A stretch of DNA of 64,000 nucleotides from Halichondria panicea. Taxonomy: Eukaryota; Porifera; Demospongiae; Suberitida; Halichondriidae. The stretch's first letter is position 1. The number at the start of each line of letters is the position of its first letter. The notes beneath the pieces were generated by a model. The model was given only the letters and a program-made list of their open reading frames with translations. It did not search any database and was not told the origin of the DNA. The translations under genes and the position numbers were made by a program. Of the stretch, positions 1 to 40,228 are shown piece by piece. The stretch lies in NCBI RefSeq assembly GCF_963675165.1, contig NC_087389.1:1770001-1834000 (forward strand). The letters run 5' to 3'.

Positions 1-44
1 TGTATCTGATACTTATGTTCACACACACACACATGCACACACAG

Positions 45-3000
45 TCCAACACTATTGCTGGCAGTACCCTGCTAGACACTGTCGAGAGGATAGCCTTCAA
101 CGTACTCACTGCAGATGTCATGATTCCCTCAAAAGAACAAACTGGTAAAAAATTATGTGGTTTGCCTTGGTGGTTAAACACAGGATGTTAAACCATAAAA
201 GTCTACACTAATGTCTTATCTTTTGCCTAAAACATTAGTACTTGGCAACTGGTCGGTGTCAAAGCAAAATTCAATTGTCAATTGTCCTCATTGCAGAAGT
301 CGTTAATTTTGAGACCCAAGTGGACAGTGACGATACATCTTTGACTGGTATTGATGTGAGGGGTAACTCTATTCGAGTGCCCACTGAGTTAGTGAGAATG
401 GTAGCTACCGGTACAACTGGACCAATCACTGTGGCCTCAGTTTACTACAGGAACATGAGTGGGCTGTTGCCCGGGACTCTGCCGGGAGAGAGGGACACTG
501 ATCTAGCATCTCCAGTGGTCTCCACCAGTCTGCAGTGCGGGGATAAGATCTGTGACACAGCCAACATTCAACTCAGTCAGCCAGTCATTGTGACACTGAA
601 ACACAGTCAACGTGCAAAAGTGAGTAATTTGTAATAATTACACACAGTATAATTATTACGTGTATGTGATTACAGGATCGTATTGAAAATGACACTACCA
701 GTGAAGTGACTTGTGTATTCTGGCAGTTCATCAGAGAAAGGTTTGTGATTCCTAACAAGTGCGTGTAGTTGCTTTAACTTGTCATACTTTGTTGCCCAGT
801 GAGTGGGCAGATCAAAGCGATCCAGTGCTCAGTATATGGCATCACTGCCATGGCTACCATATATTGCACTGGATTATATCAAGGGCGTATACAGAGAAGA
901 GGGCGTGCAACTCGCCCTATTCTCAGAATCATCCGACTTCGTATTGAGCTATTTTTAGAACTGCCCACAAAAACGCCCACGCGTAAACTTTGACCGCACA
1001 AGGTAAATCAAAGTATTTTTTTATATCTGTGCTAGCTAGCTAGCTCGATTGCAGCATAATAAAACTAGTTCTTAGCAGCAGTATGGCTCGTACTAGCAGT
1101 GTCAAAGGCAAACCATCCAACAGTTGCAACTCCAAGAAGATGAAACCTAGGTACAATAAACCTGTCTTCCTGAGTCTCTGGTACTTCTTAACAATGCACC
1201 CAGCACTTAACTTCCTGCTCGAAGGGGTTGTCTTGGACCTTGCTGGACTAGGACTGGTCATGACACTTCTCTAAAATAATACTGCACTGTTAGCTAGCTA
1301 GCAAAGGCAGCTCTGATGTACAAGCCCATCATTATAAAAACAACACTGCCCACTTGTTCACGTCTGTATACTGGATTCTATTTTTAGCATATCTGGTCTC
1401 TGATACGAAGTCGGATGAGTACGTAGGGTAGATAGTGAGTTGCATGCCCTCTTCTCTGTTGATTATATGCACTTGAACTGTGTGTAAATGCAGTAGATTT
1501 CTTTAAGAGATATCCATTTGGAACTTATGCCCCACCATCCCACACAATAACTCATTTGGTCCCTTTTATAGACTACTACTTTTATAACTACTAGTGGGAA
1601 GAAAACCTAAACATTTAAATTCAGCAAAAGTAATGAATTCCTTCAAAACACATGTCTTTTATTACGATTTATATGACCAGTCAGACGAGTTTAACGTCAT
1701 TGGGCCAACAAGTTAGTTATTGCAGGCGCCCTCGTGCAACATGCCATATATTGCACTGGATGACATAATGCCCTCGGGGCCTGCGGCCCTCGGGCATTAT
1801 ATTGTTCCAGTGCAATAGCACTCTGGCTGGGCAATAACTAATACATACTTACCGTATATGCTTGATCAGGAGCCGCAGCTACTAAATGTTTCATTTTGCT
1901 GGAAGAGGAGGCTACAATTCAAGAGAGGCCACTGTTCAAGAGCGACGTTTATTAGCTCCAGATAATTTAGTTTGTCATCTAAAGTTGTTTTCACCTGCAT
2001 AAACTTGAACTCTGCCATGAGAAAGTCTTTGTGAAGCACTAACAAGCTGCTACTTGTAGCTACGTACATGTAGCTAGCTGCTAGTAATAATTTTTTGGCT
2101 GCCACGTGCAGAAATGCTAGAGTCAAAGTTCACTGAGGCTACTATTTGAGAGCGGCTACTAAATGTTTCATTTTGCTAGCAAGGGAGGCTACTATTTGAG
2201 TGCGGCCTTTATACAAGAGCGGCCTCTGATCGAGCATATACGGTAGTCATAATCATTATGTGTCATAACAATTTACCATAATATACAGCCTTCATTAACG
2301 CCCACTTCCTTTGTTCCTTATATGGCAATTGTTCTAAGTTACACACCCGTACTTGCACTCTACACACACACACATATACACACACACGCACATACACACA
2401 CACGCATGCACGCACACAACACACACACACACACAACACACGCACAGTGGCAATCCTCTGGCTCATGGACGATGGGACACTGAAGGTTGTGTGAAAAATG
2501 GCAACCTTTCCAGCTCCACACAAACCGTGTGTGAGTGTACACATCTCACCAACTTTGCCATTCTCCTCAGTGCACGGCCACTCATCCAACCCTCTGGTGT
2601 GGCCCTGTCTCTTTCAATCATTGGCTACATTGGAGTGTCTCTATCTGTGATTGCCATGCTGGCCACTATTATGGCCTTGGTCTTTCTTAGGTGAGAAAAC
2701 CTTACTAAAAATACTGAGTGTTTCAATTGACAATGTAGGACCTTGTGGAACATGCGTAACTACATCCACATCAACCTGTGTGTGAGTCTGATTCTGGCAC
2801 AGCTGACCTTTGTGATTGGGGTGACCCCTCACGGAGGAGAGGGTGTGGTGGATCCTGGTTGTCAGACAGCAGCAGTTCTCATGCACTACTTGTTCCTGGT
2901 GTCCTTCATGTGGATGCTCATGGAGGGCGTGGTCTTGTATCTGGTCCTTGTCAAAGTCTTCGTAAAAGAACATGAACGGAAATACATTTTTAACTTCACC

Positions 3001-4178
3001 ATTGTCAGCTATGGTATGTGTAAATTCAACTGACATTGTTCATCCTCTCCCTATATAGGTGCCCCTGTACTGTACATGGCCCTCTGTATTCCGTTGGGCT
3101 TTGCTCTATCTGGCCTGGAGGATAGCTATGGCTATCAGCTGATCAACAGCAATACAACCACCATAGTGTGAGTTCAGTCGCTCTCTTATCAAGACCCAAG
3201 TATGCATGTGTGCGTACGTATACGGTTGTATACATACACCGATCTTTATGTTTATATTTTAAGTTTTCATGATAGTGTCCTCTAAAGGAGTGTTGGCTAT
3301 ACCTATTTAACTTCATGTCATTCCTATTTTTCGGCTGGGTCGGCCTTGAGTGACCCCAGAGTCAAGTTTGAGACATTATATGATTTTCTCATCAATTTCA
3401 CACTATAATTATATACCTATACTTGTGTTTGCAGCTGCTGGTTGAACCCCATCACTAACTTTATTCTGACATTCATTGTACCAGTGGTGGTGATTCTCTT
3501 GGTGAATGTTTGCTTTTTTATCATGGCAATAGTTATCATGTGTAGACACCAAACGAGGCAAGGAAAGTCACAGGAAATAAGGTATGTGGCTATTTTATGA
3601 TACAGACCAAGAGTTATTAATGAACTCCTGTACAGACACATAATTATTTGCACTGTGCTTGAAGTGTTTCTGATATAATTGTATACAGTTCTTGGTTGAA
3701 GTCATCTGTGTCACTGGTCACTGTCATGGGACTGACATGGATAACTGGTGAGAACAATAATACGTGAGATTTTGATTGTCAACACATGCAGGTCTTTTGG
3801 TGTTCGATGTCCCTGCTCTACTCCCAGTGTCGTACATCTTCACGATCTTCGCTTCATTCCAAGGAGTGGCCATTTTCATACTTTTTGTGCCTCTCTCTCT
3901 GCCAGTGAGGGATGCGTACTTCAAATGGTGGAAGGAAAAGTTGGCAAAGCATCGATATCAATTTCATTTTAAAAGCACCAAGGTATATCACTAACAAATC
4001 CAATCGTAATTACATGCCAGTGTATATAATTAGCTATGTACATTATTCTGCATTTCAGAGTGCCGCTCTCAGCAGTGTCAACACCAATGTTACCTCTCCA
4101 CCTTTGGATAGTTCGTTGAAACTGGAGTCTAATAATATTATATTCAACTCGACCATGGAAAGAGAGTCAGGTGTGTGA
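45..4178 (+). CDS. Adhesion-type GPCR (GAIN/GPS + 7TM), gene 1, 5' end outside window
   Basis: Ten exons by splice signals and phase: 45-144, 297-619, 676-740, 2448-2690, 2739-3013, 3059-3167, 3435-3581, 3689-3747, 3792-3982, 4059-4178. They total 1632 nt, 543 aa in one open frame. The N-terminal part is a GAIN-like region ending in a GPS, with the cleavage triad HLT in CECTHLTNFAILL. Seven hydrophobic segments follow (for example CVSLILAQLTFVIGV and HYLFLVSFMWMLMEGVVLYL), typical of secretin/adhesion class B2 receptors. Exons 297-2690 have the same lengths as those of gene 2 at 14447-19490, and the next exons differ only by a few codons, so the pair is a tandem duplicate. The last coding exon ends in TGA directly, whereas gene 2 splices to one more exon. 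The third intron (741-2447) is swollen by two inserted elements. The role should be a plasma-membrane receptor; the ligand is unknown. Earlier exons must lie left of the window. Confidence 0.85.
791..1842. mobile_element. Non-autonomous element(s) in gene 1 intron
   Basis: Gene 2 lacks this segment in the homologous intron, so it is an insertion. The left end reads GTTGCCCAG and the right end CTGGGCAATAAC, an imperfect terminal inverted pair. About 880-960 is an imperfect inverted match to about 1385-1465. A tight foldback at 1713-1841 (ends TTAGTTATTGC and GCAATAACTAA, core CCCTCGGG/CCCGAGGG type) sits at its right end. No transposase is visible. Confidence 0.55.
1851..2245. mobile_element. 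MITE with ~24-bp TIRs
   Basis: The left end TACCGTATATGCTTGATCAG matches the reverse complement of the right end (CTGATCGAGCATATACGGTA) with one mismatch. Internally it repeats variants of GGCTACTATTTGAGAGCGGC. It is absent from the homologous intron of gene 2. No ORF is supported. Confidence 0.65.
2363..2447. repeat. AC microsatellite ending at a 3' splice site
   Basis: An interrupted (CA)n run ends in CGCACAG, which is the acceptor of the exon at 2448. The same arrangement occurs in gene 2 (17511-17575), and shorter CA runs precede the acceptors at 44 and 16562. Confidence 0.8.
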
Positions 4179-4489
4179 TTGCACAACTTGGAAGATGTTT
4201 CTAACACATGAGCTTAATTGCTGTAACGTGTATAGGCACCCCCTCATATAGCTTCATTGTAGAGTTGTATGCGCTAGTACTGGCCGGAGCTATAAACGTA
4301 AAAATGGTATACATGTGTGATGTTTTGACCCCGTATATCATTAATTCTACTTAAAATGACGTAATCAATATAATATTATAACTACATGAGGTGTCTTAAT
4401 TCCTATCTAGCTAAGGTTTTGAACCATCAATGCATTTGAAAGGTTCAATATCTCTGTGAAAGGCTGGAACTGAACTATCAGTTGTGTAA

Positions 4490-4720
4490 TGTGTTTTTGT
4501 CATTTTTGTGGTTAGTGACTTAGAGAGGTCACGCGATTGACAGCGTAGAGACTGAGTGTTACATTGTTGTAGTTCTTTTTGTGAGCATTAGTTTTCGTGT
4601 TCTTGTGACTGTTCTATTTACATAATTATGAGCTGATTTTAAAGTAGGCTTCGGTATAATAAGCTGATTTTAAAGTAGGCTTACTACTAGTATTAGTTAA
4701 TTTGGATCACTCGGTTACAT
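4490..4720 (+). repeat. Putative 5' LTR of the gypsy element
   Basis: This lies immediately upstream of a primer-binding site and should therefore be the 3' part of a 5' LTR. It ends near TTACAT. It contains a duplicated 20-bp segment (AGCTGATTTTAAAGTAGGCT at about 4631 and 4663). No second LTR remains in the window because the element is cut off at about 8878, so the left boundary is a guess. The 300 bp between the GPCR stop (4178) and here holds nothing recognisable apart from 3' flank shared with about 20.39-20.56 kb. Confidence 0.35.
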
Positions 4721-6142
4721 ATTGGTGGCAGCGGTGGGATACTGTCTACGGTTGGTTAGACTCACCCAGTGGATGTCTGGTAGAAAAGACACAAAGTGAC
4801 GATCGAGGCGACACGAGTACCGCTAGTCAAAGTCAGACGGACATGGCAGAGACAGGCGAACTAACGGAGATGTTGAAGGCCCTTCTAGAAGATCGGAAGA
4901 CTCTAGAGGCTGACTTACGAGAAGAACGCAGAGTTCTGGCTGAAGAAACAGCCGAGATAGATGAAGGAATTCGAGAGCAGATGGACTTGCTACGAGGATT
5001 AGTAGAAAGAGCACACGGTGAGGGCGGTGACGAACGGAGGGTGACGATCCGAGCTCACGGATGCAAACGACATTGAGGTGACTTTTGATGTCTGCTTATG
5101 ATGTACCGGTGAATCGTTGCTTGCTCCTCAACTGTCTGGTAAGGCCCAGCAGGCCTATGCAGCTCTAAGTGGGGAGGCTGCGACAAGCTATACCCAAGTG
5201 AAAGAGGCCATTTTTCGAAGAAACCTTTAGGAGACGGTTTCGAACAGCGTCAGTGAGGACTGGTGAGACTGTAATGGAGCTACGAGTGAGGCTGGAGGAC
5301 CTGGCCAAGAAACGGTTGAAGGAGTGCGACACCGTGGATAAACTGAGAGACGCGATTGTGTTGGAACAGTTTTTAAATTCATTACCAGAGGAAGTGAGGG
5401 TCTGGGTCTAAGAACACAAACCAAAAACCAGCGAAGCGGCGGCCCAACTAGCAGATAACTATACCTCCAAGCCCGACAGACCCAGTCGTGAGTGAAGGAA
5501 GGAAGCCGGTAAACCCAAACCCTATTGTGTGTGCAAAGTGCAAAAGACGAGGCCATGCACAAGGCACGGAATTGTAGAGTTGGAGTGGAGGATAAAACTA
5601 GCTCTCCCCCACCTAAAGCTGAGAGGGATCTGAAAGATATTACCTGTTTCACGTGTAATCAGAAGGGCCACTACGCAGCCAACTGTCCCTCAAAGGTGAA
5701 CCTCCTGTGTATAGAACGAAGGAGTAATTTCCAGGGAGAATCAGAACTGATTCAGCACACGGTAGAGCCGAAGCCTGGAATCTTCCAAACAGGGACTATC
5801 GAAGGACAAGCAGTGACGGACGTTTGCTTAGACACTGGATGTACTAGGACGATGGTACGAGAAGACTTAGTCCCAGCAGAAAAGTTATTGGAAGGCGATT
5901 CGATTGCGATATGTTGTGCCCATGGGGATACGGTAGTGTACCCCCTGGCTAGAATTCAAGTAGAAGTGAACGGAACTACACATGAAGTGGAGGCAGCTGT
6001 TTCGAGGACATTGCCACTATCGATGTTGATGGGTACCGATGTACCAGTACTACCAGCACTCGTTACGAACAAACTGGGCGACAGCCTTAGTGGTTATGAC
6101 AAGAGCCAAGAAGAGAGCTCAAGATCGAGAAGAAGCCACTGA
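4702..6142 (+). pseudogene. gag/protease region of the gypsy element
   Basis: The first open stretch (4702-5076) is charged and predicted coiled-coil (EDRKTLEADLREERRVLAEE). The frame is broken between about 5070 and 5520. The stretch 5525-6142 carries a CCHC zinc knuckle (C-X2-C-X4-H-X4-C, at 5645-5686) and then an aspartic-protease active site, LDTGCTRTMV (DTG at 5831-5839), followed by an LMGTDV-like flap partner. It is disrupted and not expected to be functional. Confidence 0.8.
4723..4740 (+). promoter_or_regulatory. Primer-binding site, tRNA-Leu type
   Basis: TGGTGGCAGCGGTGGGAT is the exact complement of a tRNA-Leu 3' end including CCA, as I recall the animal tRNA-Leu(AAG) sequence. 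It sits where a minus-strand primer site belongs, just after the LTR and ahead of gag. Confidence 0.75.
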
Positions 6143-6162
6143 CCGACGCAACGAAGAGGAGT

Positions 6163-7560
6163 GTGGAGTACACCAAAACGGTGTTGACGAATAGTCGTGA
6201 AGACGTTACTAACCTACCTGAGTTCGATGATGATTTGTTCAGTGTAGTACGAGAGAAGAGTATATTGACTAGAAGTGAAAAGCGTGCCCAATGCCAAAAG
6301 TATCAACCTATCGACAAACCTATGGAAGAAACGAAACGAGCGTGTAGTGGGGCAGAGGAATTCCAGAAACTCCAACAGGAGGATGTGACTCTTGAAGATA
6401 CACGGAAGGCTGCGGATGCACACCCCGCTTTAACAGGTGATGGATTCTTCAAGAAGAACGGTTTGGTGTATAGACGTTGGCTTCCTCGAGGTAAACCAAG
6501 AGGAGACGAAGTGGAATAGCTTGTGTTGCTGTTGAAGTACCGACCCGAGGTGCTGAAGCTAGCTCACAAACCCCCATTTGCTGGCCACCTGGGGCGGGAC
6601 AAGACTGTGAATTGGATTAGTCAGAGATTTTATTGGCCCACGATGTTCGCCGATGTGCAGAGAGTGGTGAAGACGTGCGACGAGTGCCAGAAGACAGGGC
6701 AAGTGAAGGCACCAATGGTTCCCCTACCGATATTTTCAGAGCCATTTCGAAGGATCGCAATGGACATTGTGGGGCCCGTTATTTGCGACTATGCAACCCG
6801 GTTCCCAGAAGCTATCCCGATGAAGTCTATTGATGCAGTACATGTTGCAGAGGAGCTGCTTGTCTATTGTTTGAGATTTGGAGTGCCTCAGGAAATTCTA
6901 ACCGATCAAGGGGAAAATTTTACGTTAAAGTTGCTCGCGGAGTTGTACCGAATGTTGCACATCCATTCTATCAGAACGACACCGTATCACCCACAAACAA
7001 ACGGGCTTGTGGAGTGATTCAATAAGATCCTGAAGTCTATGTTGAGAAAGGCGGCTATATCCGAAGGAAAAGATTGGGACAAGATGGTCCCCAACCTACT
7101 CTTTGCATATCGGGAGGTCGAACAGTCATCCACAGGATTTTCACCTTTTGAATTGGTGTACGGTCGGACAGTTCGAGGGCCCTTAGATGTACTCAAAGAG
7201 ACAGGTCAAGGAGGACACAAGTGAGAGTATTGTGTCGTACGTGTTTACGATCCAAGAAAGGCTATGAAGAAGTTGGTGCCTGCAGGATGCCCAACAGACG
7301 CAGAAGCGATGGTATGACCAGAAGGCTCGTATGCTGGAGTTTGAAGTTGGAGAACAGGTGTTGGTGTTGTTGCCGACGGAATCAAAGAAGCTGTTTGCAC
7401 GGTGGCAAGGGCCATATAAGATTGTAGCGAAGACCGGTGAAGTAACTTACCGAGTGGAGATGTCAGGGCGACGGACACCCAAGCAAATCTTCCATGTGAA
7501 CATGCTGAGAAAATACTACTCGAGTGATTTTGTCGGATTTGTGCAGCAAGGTGATACCCC
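6163..7560 (+). pseudogene. Integrase region of the gypsy element
   Basis: The HHCC zinc-binding region is seen as AHKPPFAGHLGRDKT followed by CDECQKTG. The catalytic core has MDIVGP (first D), LTDQGENF (second D) and NGLVE (E). A TGA directly follows that E at 7015-7017, a TAG lies at 6517-6519, and there is a frame change near 7220. The C-terminal GPY/F motif is seen as WQGPYKIV about 60-80 residues before the RT region begins. The integrase clearly lies upstream of RT. Confidence 0.85.
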
Positions 7561-7599
7561 AGAGGGGGAAGACGTTGATGTCTGGGAGAACGATTGCAG

Positions 7600-8886
7600 T
7601 GCAGAGGGCATGACTACGGGAAAGGAACTATCGGTGGCCCAGTGCGACCAAGTACAAACTCTGATCAAGAAGTACAGTAAAAAGGTACCCGGAAGGACAG
7701 AGAAGATTGCACACTCGGTAGAAACAGGGTTGGCACATCCAATACGGCAACCCACTTACCGGATTCCCCAAGCTCATAAAGCTGAAGTCATGGCGGAAAT
7801 TGAGAAGATGGAAGAGGCAGGAGTAATTGTGCCCTCAGTCAGTCAATGGAGCTTACCGATTGTTCCTGTACGGAAGAAAGACGGTTCGCTGCGGATATGC
7901 ATTGATTATCGGAAGTTGAATGCTGTATCGCGTACGGATTCCTACCCAATGCCCCGTATCGATGACATCATTGACCTATTGGGAAAAGCTGGTTATATTT
8001 AACCCTGGATTTGGCCAAGGGCTATTGGCAAGTTCCTGCTTTTTCCTCTCCCATGGGCCTTTTTGAGTTTACGGTGATGCCGTTCGGTTTGCAAGGGGCC
8101 TCAGCTACGTTCCAGCGTCTGATGGACTCAGTGGTGGCGGGTCTAAGTTTCTGTGCGGCTTATCTGGATGATGTTGTCATTTTTAGCGAAACCTGGACGG
8201 AGCACCTGACCCATCTGGAACAGGTGTTTGTAGGTCTTGAGGAGGCCGGTTTGACAGTCAAAGCAAGTAAGTGCCAAATTGGGATGCGAGAATGTGTGTA
8301 TCTTGGTCATGTGGTCGGGAATGGCTGTGTTAGGCCAGAAGCCTCTAAACTGGAAGCAGTGAATTTGTTCTTTGTGCCAAGGACCAAGAAACAAGTAAGG
8401 TCGTTTTTAGGCTTGAGCGGTTATTATCGACCGAATTATGCATCGATAGCTGCACCTCCATCAGATTTGACAAGGAAGTCACTCCCCAAAGAAGTGAAAT
8501 GGACCGAGAAGTGCCAGGAAGCATTTGAAAACTAAAAATTTCTGAGAAACTCACCAATACTAAGGAACCCTGATTTCGGACGTAGTTTTGTGCTTCGACG
8601 GATGCTTCTGATCATGGGGGTAGGCGCAGTATTAAGTCAAGTGGACGATACTGGAGTGGATCACCCAGTTGCTTATTACAGTTGGAAATTGCTGGATAGA
8701 GAGACGAGATACTCAACAGTTGAAAAAGAATGCCTGGCCATCAAACTGGGAATTCAAGCAGTTAAGGTGTACTTGTTGGGCCGACATTTTACGGTACAGA
8801 CGGACCATCACGCTCTGACATGGCTACACAGACTCAAGGAAAACAATGCTCGATTGAGCCGGTGGAGTCTAGCTCTATCCGACTAG
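7600..8886 (+). pseudogene. Reverse transcriptase-RNase H region of the gypsy element
   Basis: RT motifs are present in order: VPVRKKDGSLRICIDYRKLN, LAKGYWQV, the catalytic YLDD box (8161-8172), YLGHVV and FLGLSGYYR. The RNase H part shows VAYYSWKLLDRETRYSTVEKE and TDHHALTWLH. A frameshift near 8000 splits the RT, a stop lies at 8533-8535, and a further frame change precedes the RNase H. The reading frame ends within a few bases of the flanking repeat at 8879. Confidence 0.85.
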
Positions 8887-9430
8887 AAAAACATTTGCAA
8901 TGTGAAAGATTGCTAGGATTGGCCAGGGGAACCACAAAAAAGCGTGGAAACAAGAAATCAGACGAGAGCATAACTCCAATCCGTTACAACGTCAATCACA
9001 TGTACTGGTAGTTTCCCATGTTTTCCCGTTCATGCGCCAATATACCACGCAATTTTTACTGGTGCATGGAGTGATGACCATGCAAATCCCTATATATTTA
9101 TATTTTGGAATGTGCGGGCATAAAAATTAATCATGTGATTTGTACTGAATTGATGTTCCTAATACATGGAGTCTTGAGCACAGGTATACACAGTCCATCC
9201 ATGCGTAGTAACATTCACGGACCGTACTGGTGACCTGCATGGAATGATGTGGTGGATGGAAGCTGCATGGTAGATGGATCTGGAACACAGTCTATATACT
9301 ATGCATTGTACATGTTCATGACGTTGTAACGGATTGGAGTTATGCTCTCGTCTGATTTCTTGTTTCCACGCTTTTTTGTGGTTCCCCTGGCCAATCCTAG
9401 CAATTTTTCACATTGCAAATGTTCTGGACT
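8879..9430. mobile_element. Long-TIR MITE, copy 1
   Basis: About 125 bp at the left (starting CCGACTAGAAAAACATTTGC) is repeated inverted at 9314-9424. Two further copies lie at 13670-14202 and 39676-40220. The copies share a central part that mentions nothing coding. This copy truncates the gypsy element on its left. Confidence 0.8.
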
Positions 9431-9623
9431 AATCAGACATCTTCTCGAATATCTCTGGACTAATAATTCAGTAATGAGTATTGCTTGATATGTTGAATTT
9501 GTGAAGCATGCCTGTCAGAGAAAGGGAGCTAGAGCTGAACACTGTGAAGAAAAGCAACACCTCAGGCTCTGGAACACTGCGATTTTAGGCACACGGTTTC
9601 TTAGCCACGCCTATCTATTATTA
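9425..9623 (-). repeat. Inverted partial copy of the composite repeat
   Basis: This is the reverse complement of roughly 13320-13580 of the composite repeat at 12803-14209, including GGGAGCTAGAGCTGAACA and CACCTCAGGCTCTGGAA. It is cut at 9622 by the TA-flanked transposon. Confidence 0.7.
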
Positions 9624-12802: not shown

Positions 12803-14209
12803 GCAGTATTAGTAAAACCAGTAGGTTTTACATAGGATTGGCAGTGGGTTTGCCCGTGTTTAGCAATATTTCAATTATTTTGACTCATGTTCAAACTGTT
12901 CTATCTCTGCAGGGAAAGGCCACATCAAGGAACTGGCTAGACAGATAGTTTATTTAGCCTTTTCTCTCTTTGTATCTCTCATTTCATAATCCATGAACAT
13001 TTTGATGAATGAATATTGTCATTTTAAAAATTGCACTATTTCGACATTTCACCGCTCTTTGTCTGACTGACTAAGTAAGTAAGTAAGTGAGTAAGTAAGT
13101 AAGTTTCTTGCCCAGCATTTGCTCCAAGTACAGCCATCTCCAGGACATTCTGCACAGGGTTTCCAAACGACTACAACCTGGGTTACAAAGCGCTTCTTCA
13201 GATTTGCGATTGCTTCCACGAGGCAGATGACCTCTCAGCCTCTATTTCTCTTACCTAGACAATTCCGCCATCTTTAATGACTCACAGCAATTGCGTTGTG
13301 GCCAATAATTATTAATAATAGATAGGCGTGGCTAATAAACCGTGCGCCTAACTTGAATCAGTGCAGTGCTTTTCCAGAGCCTGAGGTGTTGCTTTTAATC
13401 ACACTGTTCAGCTCTAGCTCCCTTTCTCTGACAGGCATGCTATATGCACTGGCTAGATATCATGCTCTTAAAATTGCTGTCATTTAATACTGATACAAAT
13501 TCAACATATCAAGCAATAATTATTACTCATTACTATAATTATTAGTCCAGAGATATTCGAGAAGATATCTGATTAGTCCTGTCTTCTCTTCTTGAACTTC
13601 TGTACTGCCTCTTGACGTTCCACTTATGCATGTCATGATACGTAAACTATACTGAAAAAGAAAGGGAATCCGACTATAAAAACATTTGCAATGTGAAAAA
13701 TTGCTAGGATTGGCCAGGGGAACCACAAAAAAGCGTGGAAACAAGAAATCAGACGAGAGCATAACTCCAATCCGTTACAACGTCATGAACATGTACAATA
13801 CATAGTATATTAAATAATAGACTGTGTTCCAGATCCACCACATCATTCCATGCAGGTCACCAGTACGGTCCGTGCATGCATGTTATACTACGCATGGATG
13901 GACTGTGTGTATACCTGTGCTCAACACTGCATGTATTAGGAACATCAATTCATCACAAATCATCATGATTATGTGCCCGCACATTCCAAAATGGATAAAT
14001 ATATAGGGATTGGTCATCACTCCACCAGTAAAAATTGCGTGGCATATTGGCTGGGAAAACATGGGAAAACTACCAGTACATGTGATTGACGTTGTAACGG
14101 ATTGGAGTTATGCTCTCGTCTGATTTCTTGTTTCCACGCTTTTTTGTGGTTCCCCTGGCCAATCCTAGCAATTTTTCACATTGCAAATGTTTTTATAGTC
14201 GGTTGTATA
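12803..14209. repeat. Composite dispersed repeat, copy A
   Basis: It starts at the palindrome GTAAAACCAGTAGGTTTTAC and ends near TAGTCGGTT. Nearly the same sequence recurs at 38838-40228, including a (TAAG)n microsatellite and the ~530-bp long-TIR MITE as its right part. No intact protein is visible. A short stretch after TCTCTGCAG looks like an old 3' exon end (GKGHIKELARQIVYLA) but is not otherwise supported. Confidence 0.75.
13670..14202. mobile_element. Long-TIR MITE, copy 2
   Basis: The ends CCGACTATAAAAACATTTGC and its inverse are about 130 bp long and frame a 270-bp centre. It is homologous to 8879-9430 and 39676-40220. Confidence 0.8.
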
Positions 14210-38837: not shown

Positions 38838-40228
38838 TATTAGTAAAACCAGTAGGTTTTACATAGGATTGGCAGTGGGTTTGCCCGTGTTTAGCAATAT
38901 TTCAATTATTTTGACTCATGTTCAAACTGTTCTATCTCTGCAGGGAAAGGCCATATCAAGAAACTGGCTGAACAGATAGTTTATTTAGCCTTTTCTCTCT
39001 TTGTATCTCTCATTTCATAATCCATAAACATTTTAATGAATGAATATTTTCATTTTAAAAATTGCACTATTTCGACGTTTCACCGCTCTTTGTCTGACTG
39101 ACTAAGTAAGTAAGTGAGTAAGTAAGTAAGTAAGTTTCTTGCCCAGCATTTACTCCAAGTACAGCCATCTCCAGGACATTCTGCACAGGGTTTCCAAACG
39201 ACTACAACCTGGATTACAAAGCGCTTCTTCAGATTTGCGATTGCTTCCACGAGGCAGATGACCTCTCAGTCTCTATTTCTCTTACCTAGACAATTCCGCC
39301 ATCTTTAATGACTCAGCAATTGCGTTGTGGCCAATAATAATAGATAGGCGTGGCTAATAAACCGTGCCTAAAATCAGTGCAGCAGTGCTTTTCCAGAGCC
39401 TGAGGTGTTCCTTTTCTTCACACTGTTCAGCTCTAGCTCCCTTTCTCTGACAGGCATGTTATATGCACTGGCTAGATATCATGCTCTTAAAATGGCTGTC
39501 ATTTAATAGTGATTCGCAAATTCAACATAGGGTCTAATTATCAAGCAATAAATTATTAGTCCAGAGATATTCGAGAAGATATCTGATTAGTCCTGTCTTC
39601 TCTTCTTGTACTGCCTCTTGACGTTCCACTTATGCATGTCATGATACGTAAACTGTACTGAAAAAGAAAGGGAATCCGACTAGAAAAACATTTGCAATGT
39701 GAAAAATTGCTAGGATTGGCCAGGGGAACCACAAAAAAGCGTGGGAACAAGAAATCAGACGAGAGCATAACTCCAATCCGTTACAACGTCATGAACATGT
39801 ACAATACATAGTATATTAGACTGTGTTCCAAATCCACCTATCAGCTTCCATCCACCACATCATTCCATGCAGTCACCAGTACGGTCCGTGCATGTTACTA
39901 CGCATGGATGGACTGTGTGTACCTGTGCTCAACACTGCATGTATTAGGAACATCAATTCATCACAAATCATCATAATTATGTGCCCCACATTCTAAAATG
40001 GATGTATAATAAATATATATAGGGATTGGTCATCACTCCACCAGTAAAAATTGCGTGGCATATTGGCTGGGAAAACATGGGAAAACTACCAGTATACATG
40101 TGATTGACGTTGTAACGGATTGGAGTTATGCTCTCGTCTGATTTCTTGTTCCCACACTTTTTTGTGGTTCCCCTGGCCAATCCTAGCAATTTTTCACATT
40201 GCAAATGTTTTTCTAGTCGGATTATATA
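38838..40228. repeat. Composite dispersed repeat, copy B
   Basis: It is nearly colinear with 12803-14209, with the same GTAAAACCAGTAGGTTTTAC start, (TAAG)n tract and terminal long-TIR MITE. Small indels distinguish the copies. Confidence 0.8.
39676..40220. mobile_element. Long-TIR MITE, copy 3
   Basis: The ends CCGACTAGAAAAACATTTGC and GCAAATGTTTTTCTAGTCGG are exact inverses. It is the right part of composite repeat copy B. Confidence 0.85.

What the first reader, a model, noticed from the sequence alone, without database searches (positions are those of the whole stretch)
4723..8878. Gypsy-type element with integrase ahead of RT (Gmr1-like)
Zinc knuckle, protease, integrase with GPY/F tail, RT and RNase H follow one another in this order on one strand. 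The sequence is gypsy-like but the order is copia-like. This matches the rare Gmr1 group, described in deuterostomes; a likely sponge copy would widen its range and bear on how the order arose.
Basis: partly seen in the sequence, partly recalled or inferred. Interest (0 to 1): 0.7.

Follow-up and report, generated by a model that had tools for sequence, protein, structure and literature searches.

The report
Sponge Gmr1-like retrotransposon with SCAN capsid
The window holds a decayed copy of a sponge jumping element whose integrase comes before its reverse transcriptase, and the same genome holds intact, recently inserted relatives with the same odd order and a SCAN-type capsid, so a known group of elements reaches down to sponges.

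Summary
The window copy runs from a 5' LTR (4455-4719) through a tRNA-Leu primer site (4723), gag, protease, integrase with GPY/F tail, RT and RNase H, in that order on one strand. Its frames are broken, and at 8876 a MITE-like repeat cuts it off. It is not a nested pair of fragments: one open frame runs from GPY/F into RT, and the genome holds intact relatives with the same order in a single 1472-1544 aa gag-pol ORF, with near-identical LTRs and 5-bp target duplications. INT-first elements form one clade in the RT tree (99/99) and, less firmly, in the INT tree. They carry a SCAN-type capsid (21 of 22 INT-first sites, 0 of 28 RT-first sites), a mark reported for Gmr1. Silicatein genes show that the host is a sponge. 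The Gmr1 reading is well supported, though no named Gmr1 sequence was at hand for a tree. 'Deuterostome-only' is out of date: Gmr1-like elements are published from crustaceans (2013) and an annelid (2021). I found no sponge report in the library. New member of a known kind, with an extended host range; moderate interest.

The parts
4455..4719 (+). 5' LTR (TGTGAAAG...GGTTACA), diverged; borders by alignment to relative L046, whose two LTRs are flanked by the 5-bp duplication GTACT
4723..4740 (+). primer-binding site, TGGTGGCAGCGGTGGGAT, complementary to the 3' end of tRNA-Leu(AAG) with CCA
4843..5073 (+). N-terminal part of gag (MAETGELTEM...), resembling the start of gag in intact relatives
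5217..5480 (+). SCAN-type C-lobe of the capsid, with one TAA inside
   Evidence: Pfam SCAN 8e-11 for the frame at 5202-5411; 6e-16 over 5217-5480
5645..5686 (+). CCHC zinc knuckle
5789..6040 (+). aspartyl protease (CLDTG at about 5825)
6538..6696 (+). integrase H2C2 zinc-binding domain
6697..7224 (+). integrase catalytic core, with an in-frame gap of about 15 codons and a stop just before 7018
7403..7510 (+). integrase GPY/F tail (WQGPY...IFHVNMLRKYY)
7268..8002 (+). single open frame of 244 aa that joins the integrase tail, a spacer and the start of RT
   Evidence: same junction in relatives
7757..8535 (+). reverse transcriptase, YLDD at 8161; one frameshift near 7975-8002
8536..8876 (+). RNase H, cut off at its C-terminal end
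8877..9423 (.). MITE-like repeat with inverted ends of about 116 nt that ends the element; not part of it

Best explanation
The region is an old, inactivated, 3'-truncated copy of a Ty3/gypsy LTR retrotransposon of the Gmr1-like kind in a sponge. Intact relatives encode one gag-pol polyprotein in the order capsid (C-lobe of SCAN type), zinc knuckle, protease, integrase, RT, RNase H. Inferred mechanism: Gag packs the RNA, reverse transcription starts from tRNA-Leu at the primer site, the protease cuts the polyprotein with integrase released upstream of RT, and the integrase inserts the copy with a 5-bp duplication. Order, domains, primer site, LTRs and duplications are shown; packaging and processing are inferred from the class. 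Within this genome the odd order most likely arose once, by moving integrase inside a gypsy lineage, since RT and integrase are both gypsy-like and give the same grouping.
For: Domain order in the window. Intact relatives with the same order in one ORF: families A (L039-L041), B (L042-L043) and C (L044), with paired LTRs and target duplications. Junction of integrase tail and RT conserved at 41-50% identity in three other families. Of 59 integrase sites compared, 22 INT-first (21 with SCAN) and 28 RT-first (0 with SCAN). INT-first is one clade in the RT tree, 99/99, and one group in the INT tree, 82/90, varying from 66 to 100 with the rows used. The capsid profile matches solved SCAN domains at 1.5e-13; the predicted C-lobe superposes on SCAN, Z 10.6. 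SCAN is reported as derived from the capsid of Gmr1-like elements (PMC4592553) and in frogs was found only in Gmr elements (PMC4131045). Fish Gmr elements also have a single gag-pol of 1506-1634 aa (PMC11117352).
Against: No named Gmr1 sequence could be placed in the trees. INT-tree support depends on the rows used. Nothing here measures expression or mobility.
Confidence: 0.88

Rival explanations
1. A rearranged or nested pair of ordinary gypsy fragments that only looks INT-first.
For: The copy is decayed and lies in a repeat-rich stretch.
Against: One open frame spans the integrase tail into RT; the genome has 22 INT-first sites among those compared, several with intact single ORFs and LTR pairs.
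Confidence: 0.01
2. An INT-first gypsy lineage that arose in sponges independently of deuterostome Gmr1; the shared order is convergence.
For: No named Gmr1 sequence could be compared; the trees hold only this genome's elements and Ty3.
Against: The sponge elements share a second, unrelated Gmr1 mark, the SCAN-type capsid, which the RT-first elements of the same genome lack, and the single gag-pol ORF of fish Gmr.
Confidence: 0.1
3. A Ty1/copia element, for which INT-first is the normal order.
For: Domain order alone.
Against: RT, RNase H, H2C2 and GPY/F domains are of the gypsy type; the RT-first gypsy elements of the genome and Ty3 are close RT relatives.
Confidence: 0.01

Closest known systems
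Gmr1 clade of Ty3/gypsy (cod Gmr1; fish Gmr1-4; crustacean GyRex4; annelid LGF3)
   Same: Integrase before RT; gypsy-type domains; single gag-pol ORF of about 1500 aa as in fish Gmr; SCAN-type capsid
   Different: Host is a sponge; elements are shorter (about 5.1 kb, LTRs about 256-290 nt, against about 6.1-6.5 kb and 337-518 nt in fish, PMC11117352); direct sequence kinship not tested
RT-first Ty3/gypsy families of the same genome (L047-L053)
   Same: Gypsy-type protease, RT, RNase H and integrase; up to about 52% identity in RT
   Different: Integrase follows RNase H; no SCAN match in gag
SCAN domain of vertebrate zinc-finger proteins (ZNF24, ZNF174, MZF1, PEG3)
   Same: Same domain family as the C-lobe of the sponge capsid
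   Different: In vertebrates a part of host proteins; here part of a retrotransposon gag

Membership tests
Gmr1-like Ty3/gypsy | integrase upstream of RT in one pol frame | tested here: met
Gmr1-like Ty3/gypsy | gypsy-type RT, RNase H and integrase | tested here: met
   Pfam matches; Ty3 the best solved relative of the RT of a sister family; trees
Gmr1-like Ty3/gypsy | SCAN-type capsid (reported for Gmr1-like elements) | tested here: met
Gmr1-like Ty3/gypsy | one clade with named Gmr1 sequences in RT and INT trees | not testable with these tools
   no Gmr1 reference sequence in the collections on hand
Gmr1-like Ty3/gypsy | LTR retrotransposon frame: paired LTRs, primer site, target duplication | tested here: met
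   met in intact relatives and L046; the window copy keeps only the 5' LTR and primer site
Ty1/copia | copia-type RT and integrase families | tested here: not met
   RVT_1, RT_RNaseH, H2C2 and p58_C matches; no copia-type RT match listed

The most novel reading that the evidence does not exclude
The INT-first order and the SCAN-type capsid were already joined in one retrotransposon lineage in the ancestor of all animals, so the SCAN domain of vertebrate zinc-finger proteins traces to a capsid type older than bilaterians and kept vertically in sponges. Horizontal transfer into sponges is the alternative and was not tested.
Probability: 0.45. Interest if true: 0.55.

Novelty: new member of a known kind. 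Interest (0 to 1): 0.42.

Why it matters
It extends a rare gypsy architecture, with intact and recently inserted copies, to a non-bilaterian animal, and shows in one genome that the odd domain order and the SCAN-type capsid go together. The age and single origin of both become testable by a survey of sponges, cnidarians, ctenophores and choanoflagellates.

Tried and rejected
A scan of viral contigs with the integrase-RT junction found no relative. The scan of prokaryote genomes gave one match, L063, an RT-first gypsy frame in a bacterial MAG contig, probably contamination. A tRNA scan of the first eight primer-site loci found no tRNA gene; a longer pattern then found the tRNA-Leu genes. In one search the script's automatic match length (3) is wrong by one base of offset, because ARAGORN's gene end includes one extra T; read by eye the window matches 18 nt. 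The best cathepsin hits of the silicatein probe, L064 and L065, are ordinary cathepsins; the two-exon hits are silicateins. A SCAN site without integrase nearby (L062) was checked as a possible domesticated gene; it carries zinc knuckles and a protease, so it is a gag-pol fragment. Ten literature searches found no sponge Gmr1 report; the library lacks most subscription papers, so absence there proves little, and the original Gmr1 and SCAN-origin papers were not read directly.

Full report
Observation. Pfam scans of the open frames in 4663-8886 find, in order on the + strand, SCAN, zinc knuckle, aspartyl protease, integrase H2C2 and rve, the integrase C-terminal GPY/F domain, RT and RNase H. 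The motifs CCHC at 5645, CLDTG at about 5825, HHCC at 6565, WQGPY at 7403 and YLDD at 8161 lie in the same order. The copy is broken by frameshifts, in-frame stops and a gap of about 15 codons in the integrase core.

Borders. Alignment to the nearest genomic relative, L046 (83% identity over 3264 aligned bases), places the 5' LTR at about 4455-4719. The primer site begins at 4723. It matches the 3' end of tRNA-Leu(AAG), for which the genome has seven matching gene ends, three of them checked as genes by ARAGORN. The right end at 8876 is where a MITE-like repeat begins whose other copies start at the same base. The RNase H tail, polypurine tract and 3' LTR are not found in the window beyond it. 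L046 itself carries a short inversion relative to window 8212-8370.

Not a nested pair. The frame 7268-8002 runs from the integrase tail into RT without a stop. A genome search with it finds full-length matches in many places, among them intact frames of 1452-1546 aa. Cut out, families A, B and C show ORFs of 1516, 1544 and 1472 aa from the first Met, LTRs of 256, 290 and about 277 nt with no or one mismatch, and 5-bp target duplications (GATAC, GTACT, CATAC, CTAAG, GTTAG, GGCTG). Piecewise Pfam scans give the same domain order as in the window. The near-identical LTRs show recent insertion.

One lineage. I compared by position 59 of the 150 integrase sites listed (picked to cover the distinct families) with the RT matches and the SCAN matches. 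Of these, 22 are INT-first and 28 RT-first, and nine have no RT match near; SCAN is present at 21 of the 22 and at none of the 28. The six SCAN sites left without integrase or RT are not near any of the other listed integrase sites either. In the RT tree, with Ty3 as outgroup, the INT-first elements form one clade at 99/99. In the INT tree they form one group at 82/90, and between 66/71 and 100/100 on subsets. These trees hold only this genome's elements, plus Ty3 for RT, so they show one origin within this genome, not kinship with named Gmr1.

Capsid. A profile of five sponge capsids matches the solved SCAN domains of ZNF24, ZNF174, MZF1 and PEG3 at 1.5e-13 to 3e-10, and no retroviral capsid at comparable strength. 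The AlphaFold model (mean pLDDT 83, pTM 0.59) has two helical lobes. The C-lobe aligns to SCAN structures (Z 8.9-10.6) and the N-lobe to capsid domains of retroviruses and PEG10 (Z about 8-9). Foldseek E-values are weak (best 2e-3), and Z values of this size can be common for helical folds, so the sequence match is the firmer evidence.

Host. A silicatein-like probe written from general knowledge found genes in which the active-site Cys is Ser (CGSSYAF, CGASYAFS) in L066, L067, L068 and L070. No species name was obtained.

Known versus new. Papers describe Gmr1 as gypsy elements with integrase upstream of RT (PMC6238403; PMC8220671). It is reported in crustaceans as the first protostome cases in 2013 (PMC3587641), in an annelid (PMC8220671) and as present in several phyla (PMC8556966). 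SCAN is described as derived from the capsid of Gmr1-like elements (PMC4592553), and in frogs was found only in Gmr elements (PMC4131045). Fish Gmr elements have a single gag-pol of 1506-1634 aa (PMC11117352). The sponge elements fit this picture. What appears new, within the limits of the library, is the sponge host and the tight link of domain order and SCAN capsid outside bilaterians.

Noticed in passing
window 8877-9423, 13668-14202, 39674-40222: MITE-like repeat family with inverted ends of about 116 nt; 88-97% identity between copies. The stretch 9426-9623 is shared by the same copies, so the full unit may be longer.
   Followed up: partly
window 2731-3600: Exons of a secretin-type seven-transmembrane receptor (7tm_2) lie just upstream of the retrotransposon copy.
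   Followed up: no
L063 (JAJTIF010000382.1), 1-4727: A contig titled as a Proteobacteria MAG holds an RT-first Ty3/gypsy frame of about 1000 aa, probably eukaryotic contamination.
   Followed up: partly
L046, about 5005-5147: The nearest relative carries a short inverted segment within RT relative to window 8212-8370.
   Followed up: no
L001 and L004 (G000:C12:1073255, C4:3575690): SCAN plus integrase sites with no RT match nearby: truncated copies, or RT missed by the capped search.
   Followed up: no
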